Below are positions 18,363 to 22,677 of a DNA stretch of 32,719 nt, piece after piece. Numbering within the stretch: the first letter of the stretch is position 1; the number at the start of each line of letters is the position of its first letter. The stretch is taken from positions 1 through 32,719 of the forward strand of contig JAKIUC010000054.1 in the NCBI GenBank assembly GCA_021647785.1, given 5' to 3'. Source of the DNA: Melioribacteraceae bacterium. GTDB taxonomy: Bacteria; Bacteroidota; Ignavibacteria; Ignavibacteriales; Melioribacteraceae. The translations under genes and the position numbers were made by a program. The notes under the pieces are model-generated. The model searched no databases and was not told the origin of the DNA. It saw only the letters and a list, made by a program, of their open reading frames with translations.

Positions 18363-19469
18363 ATGCCGAGGAGAAAGCAAATAAAGCGTATCGGAATTTT
18401 AACAGGTGGTGGTGATTGTCCAGGGTTAAATGCGGTAATCCGTGGTGTTACCAAGCCAGCATTAGACCATGGGTTAAAAGTAATGGGAATTCTTGATGGT
18501 TTTGAAGGACTTGTAATTGGTAAAGCAATTCAACTTTACGATAAAGACGTTTCAGGAATTCTTTCCATCGGTGGAACAATTCTTGGCTCATCAAATAAAG
18601 GCGACCCCTTCCATTGGCCTGTGGAAGTTGAAGGCAAAATTAAAATTACTGATAAATCGAAAGAGGCTATTGAACATTATGACGCATGGGGGCTTGATGC
18701 ACTTATAGCAATTGGCGGCGATGGAACAATGCACATTTCAAAAGGTCTATCTGAACTTGGAATGAATGTAGTTGGAGTTCCAAAAACAATTGATAACGAT
18801 TTGGAAGCTACAGATTTAACATTCGGTCACGACTCAGCAGTTTATGTTATTACAGAAGCTATCGATAGATTGAGAACTACTGCATCCGCACATCATAGAG
18901 TGATGGTAATAGAAACAATGGGAAGATATGCCGGGTGGCTTGCACTTAATGGCGGATTAGCTGGCGGTGCCGATATAATTCTACTTCCGGAAATGCCATT
19001 TGATTGGGATGCAGTTTATGAGAAAGTAAAACGCCGCTCAATGATGGGGAAAAAATATAGCATTGTTTGTGTTGCCGAAGGTGCAAAGCCCAAAGGTGGT
19101 AAACTTGTAGTAATGAAAACAGATGCAAAAAGAACAGACCCAATTCAGCTTGGTGGAGTGGCGGCTGTTGTTGCTAAAAACATTGAAGATAACACTGGAT
19201 TAGAGACTCGCTACACAATTTTAGGACATCTGCAGCGTGGAGGCGGACCTACAGCATTTGATAGAATTCTATCTACTAAATTTGGAACGTATGCAATTGA
19301 TTTAGTAATAAAAAAGAAATTTGGACGTATGGTTGCCCTTAAAGGAAATGAAGTAAAAAGTGTAACTATTGAAAATGCAATTAAACATCAGAAATTAGTA
19401 AAACCAACTGACCAAGCTGTTCTCGCTGCTAAAGCAGTGGGAGTCTGTTTTGGTACAAAAGAGTTGTAA
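18363..19469 (+). CDS. pfkA: 6-phosphofructokinase, group III type
   Basis: 368 residues. GILTGGGDCPGLNAVIRG (11-28) is the nucleotide or diphosphate loop, IGGDGT (117-122) and PKTIDND (140-146, with the catalytic Asp) follow, and METMGR-type IETMGRYAGW and GHLQRGGGPTAFDR complete the fructose-6-phosphate site. It converts fructose 6-phosphate to the 1,6-bisphosphate in glycolysis. Gly121 corresponds to E. coli Gly104, where diphosphate-dependent enzymes have Asp, while Lys141 sits where ATP enzymes such as E. coli's have Gly. Gly plus Lys is the pattern of the group III ATP-using enzymes, so ATP is the likelier donor. GAGG precedes the ATG. Confidence 0.92.
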   Translation: MPRRKQIKRIGILTGGGDCPGLNAVIRGVTKPALDHGLKVMGILDGFEGLVIGKAIQLYDKDVSGILSIGGTILGSSNKGDPFHWPVEVEGKIKITDKSKEAIEHYDAWGLDALIAIGGDGTMHISKGLSELGMNVVGVPKTIDNDLEATDLTFGHDSAVYVITEAIDRLRTTASAHHRVMVIETMGRYAGWLALNGGLAGGADIILLPEMPFDWDAVYEKVKRRSMMGKKYSIVCVAEGAKPKGGKLVVMKTDAKRTDPIQLGGVAAVVAKNIEDNTGLETRYTILGHLQRGGGPTAFDRILSTKFGTYAIDLVIKKKFGRMVALKGNEVKSVTIENAIKHQKLVKPTDQAVLAAKAVGVCFGTKEL

Positions 19470-19542
19470 ACTTTTATTTGCATAGAAATAAAAAATGTTT
19501 GTAATTTTATATTCGTTCTTTTTGAAATTTGAAGTTAGTATT

Positions 19543-19625
19543 GGGGTCGTAGCTCAGTTTGGTTAGAGCGCCTGCCTGTCACGCAGGAGGTCGTCCCGAT
19601 GTTGCGGGAAGTCTCGTTGTTTTTG
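19543..19625 (+). pseudogene. tRNA-Asp(GTC) with disrupted T arm and acceptor 3' strand
   Basis: The 5' part is a normal tRNA-Asp: acceptor GGGGTCG, D arm, anticodon arm CCTGC-CTGTCAC-GCAGG (anticodon GTC at 19578-19580) and variable loop AGGTCG. The expected T arm with TTCGA is absent. In its place is the palindrome TCCCG-ATGTTG-CGGGA (19594-19609), followed by AGTCTCGT, which looks like the end of a normal T arm, and TGTTTTT, which pairs with the acceptor only through G-T wobble and one C-G pair. No CCA follows. The gene is most likely inactivated by a repeat replacing the T loop. A terminator follows directly. Confidence refers to the tRNA-Asp origin and the damage. Confidence 0.75.
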
Positions 19626-19657
19626 CAAAAAAAAGAAGTTTTTGACTTCCTTTTTTA
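19626..19657 (+). terminator. Terminator after the tRNA-Asp gene
   Basis: An A-rich left side with GAAGT, a TTTTG loop, ACTTC, and then CTTTTTT form a hairpin with a T run one base after the tRNA-like sequence ends. It supports that this site was once a transcribed tRNA unit. Confidence 0.65.
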
Positions 19658-20186: not shown

Positions 20187-21842
20187 ATGTCAAATCAAAT
20201 AGAAAACATCTCAACATCTGAAACTGAATTTGCAGTACTCGATTTTGAAACAACAGGTGGTTCGGGTAAAAAAAACCGTGTAATTGAAATAGGAATTGTT
20301 CACGTAAAGAATTTGGAAATTGTAGATTCCTATCAAACCTTTATTAATCCTGGACTTCTTGTTCCATATTATATAACAAAAATTACTGGCATTACTGATG
20401 CAGATCTTCACGACGCTCCTTTTTTTGAAGATATAACTTCTGAGGTGCTTGATTTTATTGGGGATTCTGTACTTGTGGCACACAACCTCCCATTCGATTT
20501 TAGTTTTTTAAAACACGAGTTTATACGGGCTGATATTCTTCTTCCAAAAATGAATAGCTTATGTACATTAAAACTTGCACGAAAAATGTATCCTGAATTA
20601 AAAAGCAAATCGCTCGGAAATCTTGTTAAACATTTTGGGATACAACATAAGAATGTACATAGGGCTTTGGGAGATGCAATGGTTACTGCAAAGTTGTTAA
20701 TTAAAATGATTACTCAACTAAAGAAGGACCAAAACATTTCAACTTTGGATCAGTTGCTTGCCTACCAATCAGTTGCTCCTATAAAATCTAACCTAAGAAT
20801 TATTAAAAAGAAACTCGTAGTTGATTTTGCAAAAGCTCCCTTAACTCCTGGAGTCTATCTATTCAAAGATGCAAAAGGGAAAATTATTTATATCGGGAAA
20901 GCTAAAATAATTAAGAAGCGAGTAGCAAACTATTTTTCAAATACTGCTACAAGGAAGGCAAAACAGATTGTTCGTAAAGCATCCAGCTTGGAGTACATCC
21001 AAACAAATTCTGAATTAAGTGCTTTAATTTTGGAGGGTGAACTAATTAAAAAGCACAAACCCCCTATGAACACTATGCTTAAGAAATATCCACAGCAATA
21101 TTTCATTAAAGTAAAACAGACGCACGACTACCCACACTTATCTTCTGTTTCTAAAATAGAGTTTGATGGGAACGATTACTTTGGACCATACAGCAATAGA
21201 GAGACTTCCAAAAATTTGATTGATATTGTAAACAAAACATACCAATTGCGTGAGTGTTCCGATAAAGAATTGAAGCGTGGGAAAAAATGTTATTTGCTTG
21301 ACATTAAAAGGTGTGTTGCCCCTTGTATTTACCCGTGTAATGCAGATTACAGAAACGAGCTAACCTCTGCATACACTTTTCTATCTGGTGAAAATCAAGA
21401 AGCTGTAAATAAACTTCTCCGTAAAATGAAATCACTATCGGAGCAACAAAAATATGAAGAGGCTGCGGAGATAAGAGATATCACAAATCAGATTTTGAAT
21501 CAACTAAATCGTGCATCCATTATTGCAGAACCAGTGAACAAAGCAAATGCACTTATTAAAATTACATCTAACTCTAACTTCGATTTTATTCTTTTTATTG
21601 ATGGCAAATTATTAATTAAAAATTTGCCTTGCGAAAATGAAAATATTTTTGAGTTATCTATTGTAGATTATTATAATAATCAATCACACATTGATGAAAA
21701 CCCTACTGCAAAAGATTTGGGAAGAATGAAGATAACCCTTAGCTGGCTTGTAAATAATAGGAACTCATTTAAGATTTTCTATTTAAAAGATTTTAATTCC
21801 GCTGATGATGTTTTTAAGAAAACACTTTTAATGGGTATGTAA
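20187..21842 (+). CDS. DEDDh exonuclease fused to UvrC-like GIY-YIG nuclease
   Basis: 551 residues. Residues 14-180 are a DnaQ-type 3'-5' exonuclease with Asp19 and Glu21 (VLDFETTGG), Asp104 (HNLPFDFSFL), and His158 with Asp163 (HRALGDAM). Residues 218-300 are a GIY-YIG domain (TPGVYLFKD, YIGKAK, Arg245, Glu283 in ILEGELIKKHKP). A UvrC-like cysteine set follows (Cys357, 368, 376, 380, with an extra Cys384), in UvrC a likely iron-sulfur site, and then a UVR motif (about 415-435, SEQQKYEEAAEIRD). The C-terminal ~110 residues are unassigned; the UvrC RNase H-like nuclease is absent. Fusions of this type are known and are thought to act in DNA repair, with one incision like Cho. It stands alone on its strand. 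Confidence 0.88.
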   Translation: MSNQIENISTSETEFAVLDFETTGGSGKKNRVIEIGIVHVKNLEIVDSYQTFINPGLLVPYYITKITGITDADLHDAPFFEDITSEVLDFIGDSVLVAHNLPFDFSFLKHEFIRADILLPKMNSLCTLKLARKMYPELKSKSLGNLVKHFGIQHKNVHRALGDAMVTAKLLIKMITQLKKDQNISTLDQLLAYQSVAPIKSNLRIIKKKLVVDFAKAPLTPGVYLFKDAKGKIIYIGKAKIIKKRVANYFSNTATRKAKQIVRKASSLEYIQTNSELSALILEGELIKKHKPPMNTMLKKYPQQYFIKVKQTHDYPHLSSVSKIEFDGNDYFGPYSNRETSKNLIDIVNKTYQLRECSDKELKRGKKCYLLDIKRCVAPCIYPCNADYRNELTSAYTFLSGENQEAVNKLLRKMKSLSEQQKYEEAAEIRDITNQILNQLNRASIIAEPVNKANALIKITSNSNFDFILFIDGKLLIKNLPCENENIFELSIVDYYNNQSHIDENPTAKDLGRMKITLSWLVNNRNSFKIFYLKDFNSADDVFKKTLLMGM

Positions 21843-22180: not shown

Positions 22181-22677
22181 TGGTTTATTAAAGATTACAA
22201 GGGAAGAAGAAAAAAGTATAAATTCCCAGAGTATGTTGAATTTAAAACAAAACCACAGTTGGCAGTTGAAATGCTTGAGTATTATTATATTAGCAACACT
22301 CCGGAAAACACAAAACTGGAAACCTTCGTCTGGTTAAGTGGGCTTAGATGGGCAATAGTATCCCGACTTATCGGGAAAGAAACAAAAAGTGAATTAGGTA
22401 TGGATCAGTATTAGGTCAGAAAATATCCAGGGGTGGAATCATCACATTTTAACTTGTATGCTATCTCACTTTTTTCTTTGGCACCTGAAAATCAGATTGA
22501 AAAAAAAGCACCGTCTATTACTCTGTCGTAGCTTAGAGTTCTACTTGAGGTTGTTTTACCTTTGAGAACTTATGATATTGATGGTGGTAATATCAATAAT
22601 AAGATGGGTACAAATAATGGGAATACATCCTTTTAGAAAAATCATAGAGTTTATCTTTCACATAAAAAAAAGATTTA
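22181..22677 (+). pseudogene. IS701-family transposase, C-terminal remnant
   Basis: An open stretch from 22181 reads WFIKDYKGRRKKYKFPEYVE, YYYISNTPENTKLETFVWLS, GLRWAI and KETKSELGMDQY, then TAG at 22412 where relatives have Glu. Past an extra G in 22430-22433, WNHHILTCMLSHFFLWHLKI continues in another frame, and after the A run at 22496-22507 the frame shifts back (LRVLLEVVLPLRTYDI, with TAG at 22529). HRVYLSHKKK closes the homology near 22677. This order of motifs is that of the last third of IS701-type transposases. A palindrome at 22361-22376 replaces a few codons before ETKSELG, where the catalytic Glu region lies. The N-terminal two thirds are missing. No terminal repeats of the original element were found. 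Confidence 0.75.
22361..22376. repeat. TCCCGA/TCGGGA palindrome inside the transposase remnant
   Basis: TCCCGA-CTTA-TCGGGA, a perfect 6-bp stem with 4-base loop. It interrupts transposase homology (RWAI | ETKSELG). The same kind of unit is in the tRNA-Asp (19594-19609), the element at 15678-15692, and the core of the terminator at 8076-8090. Confidence 0.6.

What the first reader, a model, noticed from the sequence alone, without database searches (positions are those of the whole stretch)
19543..19625. tRNA-Asp with its T arm replaced by a palindromic repeat
The sequence is normal through the variable loop, then TCCCG-ATGTTG-CGGGA stands where the TTCGA loop should be. Downstream AGTCTCGT looks like the old T-arm end and the acceptor strand is TGTTTTT instead of CGACCCC. 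The same palindrome type also interrupts a transposase in this window. Either the gene is dead and another tRNA-Asp exists, or an unusual RNA is made from a tRNA promoter and terminator.
Basis: partly seen in the sequence, partly recalled or inferred. Interest (0 to 1): 0.68.

Follow-up and report, generated by a model that had tools for sequence, protein, structure and literature searches.

The report
Dead tRNA, relic of selfish element
A bacterium's aspartate tRNA gene has been broken by a short hairpin sequence, and comparison with related genomes suggests that it is the scar of a tiny selfish DNA element that places a DNA-cutting enzyme gene beside tRNA genes and leaves hairpin-marked tRNA fragments behind.

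Summary
At 19543-19624 lies a tRNA-Asp(GTC) gene, normal to position 51, in which CGAGTTCG of the T arm is replaced by TCCCGATGTTGCGGGA. The acceptor strand is lost and the RNA folds no better than shuffles. The gene looks dead; one intact tRNA-Asp exists on contig C74.

The junction GGTCG|hairpin|AGTCTC occurs in 9 of 296 sampled genomes, this one included, and in 26 stretches of genome contigs, one judged a chance match. Of the 26, 19 hold an intact tRNA-Asp or tRNA-Gly and 14 a small GIY-YIG ORF.

In ten genomes, 33 of 56 small GIY-YIG loci lie within 500 bp of a tRNA, all on the same strand, against 0 of 21 UvrC/Cho-type controls. Of the 33, 28 have a tRNA remnant and 23 a significant hairpin insert. 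The nuclease tree follows the tRNA target.

Best reading: a relic of a tRNA-targeting, homing-like GIY-YIG element resembling yeast WHO elements. Mobility, cutting and the hairpins' role are inferred. Nine full-text searches (capped listings) showed me no description.

The parts
18363..19469 (+). pfkA (6-phosphofructokinase), conserved upstream neighbour of tRNA-Asp; marks this as the ancestral tRNA-Asp locus
   Evidence: Pfam PF00365 E 1.6e-103; pfkA lies upstream of tRNA-Asp on the same strand in 21 of 38 distinct relative loci examined
19543..19593 (+). tRNA-Asp(GTC) positions 1-51: acceptor 5' strand, D arm, anticodon arm, variable loop, GGTCG
   Evidence: identical to the intact C74 copy, and the local alignment stops at the hairpin boundary
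19594..19609 (+). palindromic hairpin TCCCG-ATGTTG-CGGGA replacing CGAGTTCG of the T arm
   Evidence: same junction: 16 matches in 9 of 296 genomes, this one included, and 26 genome contigs stretches, one judged chance
19610..19619 (+). old 3' side of the T arm (AGTCTCGTTG)
   Evidence: comparison with the C74 and G002 copies
19620..19624 (+). T run where the acceptor 3' strand should be; acceptor stem lost. TTTTTGCAAAAA is a perfect palindrome
19635..19656 (+). native tRNA terminator (GAAGTTTTTGACTTCCTTTTTT), nearly identical in same-genus genome G002
   Evidence: by eye; the pattern scan lists only another weak site at 19604-19617
22361..22376 (+). second palindrome of the same type (TCCCGACTTATCGGGA) inside a decayed transposase-like frame; not part of the tRNA relic
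   Evidence: transposase resemblance recalled

Best explanation
The window holds a dead tRNA-Asp gene that is the relic of a tRNA-targeting GIY-YIG element. SHOWN in relatives: a unit of about 300-450 bp, made of a small stand-alone GIY-YIG nuclease ORF plus a partial tRNA copy whose arms are swapped for or interrupted by short hairpins, sits beside an intact tRNA gene on the same strand, often in tandem. The nuclease lineage largely follows the tRNA target. INFERRED: the nuclease cuts the tRNA gene; repair from a donor inserts the unit and rebuilds a whole tRNA from the old 5' part and an element-borne 3' part; the old 3' end is pushed downstream behind the hairpin. The hairpin probably breaks the cutting site and the homology of the displaced copy, so that it is not cut, not processed as tRNA and not recombined away. 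In the window the nuclease ORF and the rebuilt 3' end are gone, most simply by recombination between the GAGGTCG repeats on either side. What is left is the 5' half joined through the hairpin to the old 3' end and native terminator. Loss was tolerable because of the intact tRNA-Asp on contig C74.
For: Same junction in 9 of 296 genomes and 26 genome contigs stretches, among them complete CP054675 and single-contig G012 and G037. Of the 26 stretches, 19 hold an ARAGORN tRNA-Asp or tRNA-Gly and 14 a GIY-YIG-type ORF by motif; a profile adds L093, L097 and L099; some stretches end at contig or block ends. PF01541 in 10 genomes: 106 matches, 85 small ones in 56 clusters; 33 of 56 within 500 bp of a tRNA, 33 of 33 same strand, 16 anticodon types; 0 of 21 UvrC/Cho-type controls. 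Of the 33, 28 have a tRNA remnant and 23 an insert that at most 2 of 100 shuffles match in stability. In the five of the ten genomes not known beforehand to hold the Asp junction (G007, G010, G024, G035, G038), tallied by hand: 15 of 21 clusters near a tRNA, 13 of 15 with remnant, 11 of 15 with hairpin. Tree of 64 nucleases: 22 label changes by tRNA type, shuffled mean 40.1, 0 of 200 as low; Asp 19 rows in 3 changes, shuffled 16.6. Y5, Y16, G18, R26, H30, E62 invariant in 14 hand-picked proteins; dN/dS or pN/pS under 0.35 in 13 of 14 hand-picked pairs, three of them saturated at silent sites. At the syntenic pfkA-tRNA-Asp locus 9 of 21 loci carry the ORF downstream and 12 do not. ORF-less remnants like the window's exist at C74, L076, L094 and L088.
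Against: No GIY-YIG ORF lies at the window site or at C74, so membership of this copy rests on the shared junction. The intact tRNA beside the nuclease has the same T-arm sequence as in loci without the element, so how the donor escapes cutting is unexplained. A chimeric rebuilt 3' half is only weakly hinted at: acceptor wobble or mismatch in 15 of 16 tRNA-Asp with ORF against 12 of 20 without, p 0.026, not corrected for kinship, and two loci were misfiled by my distance cut-off. Twenty-three of 56 small GIY-YIG clusters have no tRNA within 500 bp, 5 of 33 have no remnant, and 10 of 33 no insert passing the test. Ser(GCT) and Ser(TGA) rows do not cluster on the tree. The ten genomes were picked for few contigs after searches had shown the junction in five of them. 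Many of the 21 pfkA loci came from the hairpin search; in those alone 3 of 14 are filled. Palindromes of the same type also sit in non-tRNA relics, so hairpin gain may be partly independent. Filled and empty sites could reflect vertical inheritance with losses. No cutting or movement was observed.
Confidence: 0.64

Rival explanations
1. A dispersed REP-like palindrome inserted into a redundant tRNA-Asp gene by its own mobility, for example by a Y1/RAYT transposase; the GIY-YIG association of relatives is incidental.
For: 45 TCCCGN6CGGGA sites in the genome, control 0; palindromes also occur in non-tRNA places: the decayed frame at 22361 and a group II intron RT-like frame in L013 (both identities recalled). 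Six Y1_Tnp matches in the genome, two of them adjoining.
Against: The same 8 bases are replaced in many genera. Remnants at other tRNAs carry unrelated hairpin sequences. None of the stretches fetched around the six Y1_Tnp matches (up to 1.5 kb each side) holds such a palindrome.
Confidence: 0.18
2. The hairpin-bearing tRNA is a functional small RNA or decoy made from the tRNA promoter.
For: Intact 5' half; window 19500-19593 is 97% identical to C74; terminator kept.
Against: Predicted fold no better than shuffles, z 0.22; acceptor strand decayed; remnants elsewhere are fragments of varied extent, several overlapping the ends of nuclease ORFs.
Confidence: 0.05
3. Direct gene conversion of the chromosomal tRNA-Asp by a hairpin-bearing remnant elsewhere, without an element ever having been at this site.
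For: C74 carries such a remnant just after its intact tRNA; the sequence on both sides of the window hairpin matches the tRNA.
Against: The C74 hairpin has another loop (ATATTT, window ATGTTG) and its 3' part reads AGTCTCATCG, window AGTCTCGTTG.
Confidence: 0.1

Closest known systems
Yeast WHO elements (Coughlan et al. 2020, PMC7282813; abstract, outline and the section on repeated homing read)
   Same: Nuclease gene between a full host gene and displaced fragments of that gene; tandem clusters; each homing event is proposed to replace the host gene's 3' end.
   Different: WHO codes for intein-zinc finger fusion proteins (LAGLIDADG type, recalled) at FBA1 of yeasts; here a minimal GIY-YIG protein at bacterial tRNA genes, and the fragments carry hairpins.
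T-even phage SegB (PMC13096335, passages read)
   Same: Free-standing GIY-YIG nuclease often beside tRNA genes, cuts within tRNA genes, drives segmental amplification.
   Different: Phage-borne; the passages I read mention no hairpin-swapped tRNA remnants. Two viral-contig scans, one with a single nuclease protein and one with the Asp junction, found nothing.
UPF0213 / minimal Slx1-like GIY-YIG proteins (PDB 1zg2, 1ywl)
   Same: Nearest solved sequences, E 1.2e-08 and 1.4e-06; single-domain size.
   Different: In PMC1564403 (passages found by search terms) 'tRNA' occurs three times, once for a methylase fusion and twice in references; no tRNA-gene association appeared there.
REP elements with RAYT transposases; Rickettsia palindromic elements (both recalled; for the latter only a search listing seen)
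   Same: Short palindromes, many copies, found inside genes or relics.
   Different: No palindrome near the Y1_Tnp matches; recurring arm positions in tRNA remnants; diverse hairpin sequences.

Membership tests
Functional tRNA-Asp gene | Complete T arm and acceptor stem | tested here: not met
GIY-YIG homing-type element (relatives) | GIY-YIG domain with conserved catalytic residues | tested here: met
   PF01541 E 1.8e-16; invariant Y, Y, G, R, H, E in 14 proteins; that these are the catalytic ones is recalled
GIY-YIG homing-type element (this window) | Nuclease ORF at the site | tested here: not met
   ORFs of the window; the GIY-YIG domain at 20847-21068 belongs to a 551-aa exonuclease/UvrC-like protein. 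Hence filed as relic only
GIY-YIG homing-type element (relatives) | Nuclease lineage specific for its target | tested here: met
   22 label changes against 40.1 shuffled; the two Ser types are exceptions
GIY-YIG homing-type element (relatives) | Occupied and empty sites at the same locus | tested here: met
   9 of 21 pfkA-tRNA-Asp loci filled; transfer not shown
GIY-YIG homing-type element (relatives) | Insertion destroys the element's own target | tested here: inconclusive
   Remnant broken by hairpin, but the adjacent intact tRNA keeps the T-arm sequence
GIY-YIG homing-type element (relatives) | Cuts target DNA and moves | not testable with these tools
   -
WHO-like element | Chimeric host gene with element-borne end | tested here: inconclusive
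   15 of 16 against 12 of 20, p 0.026, uncorrected
REP/RAYT | Palindromes flanking a Y1 transposase gene | tested here: not met
   none in the stretches around six Y1_Tnp matches
Group I intron or other known RNA | Rfam match at the insert | tested here: not met
   only the tRNA family matched in the window at gathering threshold

The most novel reading that the evidence does not exclude
A widespread, undescribed class of minimal bacterial mobile elements (one GIY-YIG gene of about 80 codons plus a hairpin-marked tRNA fragment) that home into tRNA genes of many types, with the hairpins as a functional part: either they mark displaced copies as immune to cutting, or they are the structure that the nuclease recognises, standing in for tRNA arms extruded from single-stranded DNA.
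Probability: 0.35. Interest if true: 0.87.

Novelty: new variant of a known kind. Interest (0 to 1): 0.74.

Why it matters
If true, chromosomal tRNA genes of Ignavibacteria and related lineages are regular targets of a selfish element smaller than most insertion sequences. It would explain tandem GIY-YIG genes and false tRNA calls in annotation, and would be a bacterial parallel to yeast WHO elements. The nuclease families with matched tRNA targets make target recognition by a domain without an obvious DNA-binding part directly testable.

Tried and rejected
Misassembly: judged unlikely, since both flanks at the window site look native and the same junction recurs in independent assemblies, some complete; reads not available. 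RAYT origin of the palindromes: none near the six Y1_Tnp matches. Known structured RNA or intron: none in the window besides the tRNA. Rfam-type target of five GIY-YIG loci without tRNA (L115, L117, L176, L136, L149): no match. Phage carriage: the protein scan, with one protein and so close relatives only, gave 17 pattern stretches, none a relative; the pattern scan gave 0. Hydrogenimonas match L103: no tRNA flanks, looks protein-coding by eye, taken as chance.

Rows dropped, biases and mended numbers. One search's output was cut; one search lists its inserts of 12-60 nt. (55 unique inserts, 41 with at most 2 of 200 shuffles as stable) is biased, because many of its loci were found through the hairpin. 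One search takes its loci from PF01541 only, but the ten genomes were picked for few contigs and five of them (G000, G012, G020, G033, G037) were already known to hold the Asp junction; the split for the other five is given above. Its search may miss short or decayed remnants; 22 of 86 nuclease rows left out as tandem or near copies by a list I chose; some near copies stayed (L091/L092, two L078 rows); labels used a tRNA within 1900 nt, two (L092, L097) set from the adjacent remnant; few columns, many unresolved forks; most Asp rows were found through the hairpin; 14 loci left out as duplicates, L063 dropped because its T arm did not match my pattern, L086 and L106 counted as 'no ORF' although each has an ORF further on, L088's tRNA called one base off. 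One search lists only part of the tRNA matches and was not used for counts. One search failed through my own faulty pattern and was redone. Literature: ten searches cover open PMC papers only, and I saw listings of the top 8-20 of 22-215 papers each (for WHO elements, 2 of 2).

Full report
WHAT IS THERE. The window is contig C5 of a 4.25 Mb, 99-contig genome, 99.16% complete and 3.51% contaminated by the tool's figures. A same-family genome, G057, has a contig of the same length and content as an Ignavibacteriales MAG record, so the window is probably from Ignavibacteriales (inference). At 19543 a tRNA-Asp(GTC) gene begins 73 bp after pfkA. It is normal to position 51, then TCCCGATGTTGCGGGA (19594-19609) replaces CGAGTTCG, followed by AGTCTCGTTG, TTTTT and the native terminator. 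The acceptor 3' strand is destroyed, Rfam scores it lowest of the 35 tRNA matches listed, and its predicted fold is no better than shuffled sequence, while the intact copy folds as a cloverleaf. The Asp anticodon arm with GGTCG occurs twice in the genome, here and on C74, so C74:8682 is the only working tRNA-Asp gene seen.

THE C74 COPY. C74 shares with the window the last part of pfkA, the spacer and tRNA positions 1-51; the alignment stops at the hairpin boundary. After its intact tRNA come 8 bases and then GAGGTCG|TCCCGATATTTCGGGA|AGTCTCATCG, the same kind of remnant with another loop. Same-genus genomes G001-G004 have pfkA and an intact tRNA-Asp with no such hairpin in the next 700 nt; G002 has nearly the window's terminator. 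The window is therefore most likely the ancestral locus with a dead gene, and C74 a duplicated segment with the live one.

THE SAME JUNCTION ELSEWHERE. GGTCGTCCCGN(4-8)CGGGAAGTCTC occurs 16 times in 9 of 296 genomes of the phylum sample, this genome included, reversed control 0, and in 26 stretches from 23 assemblies in genome contigs. Titles name Ignavibacteria, Melioribacteraceae, Chlorobiota, Kryptoniota, Zixibacteria, Balneolaceae, Rhodothermia, Marivirga atlantica and Hydrogenimonas; the last is judged a chance match. Of the 26 stretches 19 hold an intact tRNA-Asp or tRNA-Gly and 14 a GIY-YIG-type ORF by motif, mostly of 78-88 codons, between the intact tRNA and a remnant; the ORF's last codons and stop often lie inside remnant and hairpin. 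Tandem units occur: in G037 five nucleases at 315-bp spacing, with five remnants that share one hairpin, the last with changed flanks.

GENERALITY. PF01541 was searched in ten genomes picked for few contigs, five of them already known to hold the Asp junction: 106 matches, 85 in frames under 200 codons forming 56 clusters, 21 in long frames. 33 of 56 clusters have an ARAGORN tRNA within 500 bp, all 33 on the same strand (25 with the ORF downstream, 8 upstream or overlapping), 16 anticodon types; 0 of 21 long-frame controls. By my rough arithmetic about 1.5% would be expected by chance. In 28 of the 33 there is a tRNA remnant, and in 23 an insert that at most 2 of 100 shuffles match in stability; several inserts do not pass. 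In the five genomes not known beforehand to hold the junction the figures, tallied by hand, are 15 of 21 clusters, 13 of 15 and 11 of 15. Inserts replace the anticodon arm, sit in the D-loop/anticodon region, or replace or interrupt the T arm; their sequences differ (TCCCG..., TGGCGCC..., CCCGCC..., TCCGTT..., CCATCGCC...). The window's own genome shows the same at tRNA-Gly(TCC), which has two upstream 5' remnants with the anticodon arm swapped and a GIY-YIG ORF just after the intact gene, and at tRNA-Arg(TCT), with two upstream remnants, one with a perfect hairpin, and no PF01541 match on that contig.

THE NUCLEASE. The closest solved sequences are UPF0213 proteins. Key positions are invariant in 14 hand-picked proteins, and 13 of 14 hand-picked pairs show dN/dS or pN/pS under 0.35, so the protein appears to be under selection. 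On a 64-row tree, tRNA-target labels change 22 times against 40.1 when shuffled (0 of 200 as low). Asp rows form few groups, near Gly(GCC), whose T arm has the same sequence; Pro(CGG) and Cys rows from different genera pair up. Ser(GCT) and Ser(TGA) rows do not cluster. Ten loci without tRNA form a separate branch (support 97) and look like a different GIY-YIG family.

MECHANISM. Shown: anatomy, association, largely target-following phylogeny, occupied and unoccupied sites at pfkA-tRNA-Asp (9 and 12 of 21; 3 and 11 of the 14 that came). Inferred: cutting of the tRNA gene, repair-driven insertion, rebuilding of the tRNA, and displacement of the old part, by analogy with the WHO model (PMC7282813, section read). 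The hairpin's most likely role is to break the cutting site and homology in the displaced copy. Why a hairpin rather than any filler is not explained; recognition of hairpins by the nuclease is the bolder alternative. The unsolved point is that the intact tRNA beside the nuclease keeps the T-arm sequence of loci without it. For the window itself, deletion between the two GAGGTCG repeats of a former unit gives the observed structure, but no intermediate was found.

WHAT IS KNOWN. T-even phage SegB is a GIY-YIG homing nuclease that cuts within tRNA genes and is often found near them (PMC13096335, passages). The GIY-YIG superfamily survey (PMC1564403, passages) showed no tRNA-gene association in the passages found. 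Nine full-text searches on related terms listed no paper whose title or abstract start describes hairpin-marked tRNA remnants with GIY-YIG genes in bacterial chromosomes. Only the top 8-20 titles of each were shown, and subscription papers and preprints were not covered, so priority is uncertain.

VERDICT. As a single locus this is a dead tRNA gene. As a pointer it leads to a recurrent and apparently undescribed element type, a new variant of homing-type elements.

Noticed in passing
window 22361-22376: A second TCCCG-N6-CGGGA palindrome lies inside a decayed transposase-like frame that stays open in register on both sides of it (identity recalled, not searched).
   Followed up: partly
L013 1501-1516 and 1569-1586 (own contig C14): Two palindromes sit inside what looks like a group II intron reverse-transcriptase relic (recalled resemblance), so hairpin gain is not confined to tRNA remnants.
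   Followed up: no
L115, L117, L176: Three small GIY-YIG genes from two genomes, one of them on the window's own contig C52, form one branch (support 96) but have no tRNA or Rfam match nearby; their target, if any, is unknown.
   Followed up: partly
window 19620-19631: The acceptor change to TTTTT next to GCAAAAA makes a perfect palindrome TTTTTGCAAAAA, which looks like a template-switch (quasi-palindrome correction) mutation.
   Followed up: no
L159 (G038 tRNA-Met): Six successive 5' tRNA-Met remnants, spaced 72-74 bp, each with a hairpin near or in place of the anticodon arm, upstream of the intact gene.
   Followed up: partly
L156 (G020): Two GIY-YIG genes 6.4 kb apart lie amid eight copies of a GTCATTCCCG..CGGGAATC repeat, with no ARAGORN tRNA in the stretch.
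   Followed up: no
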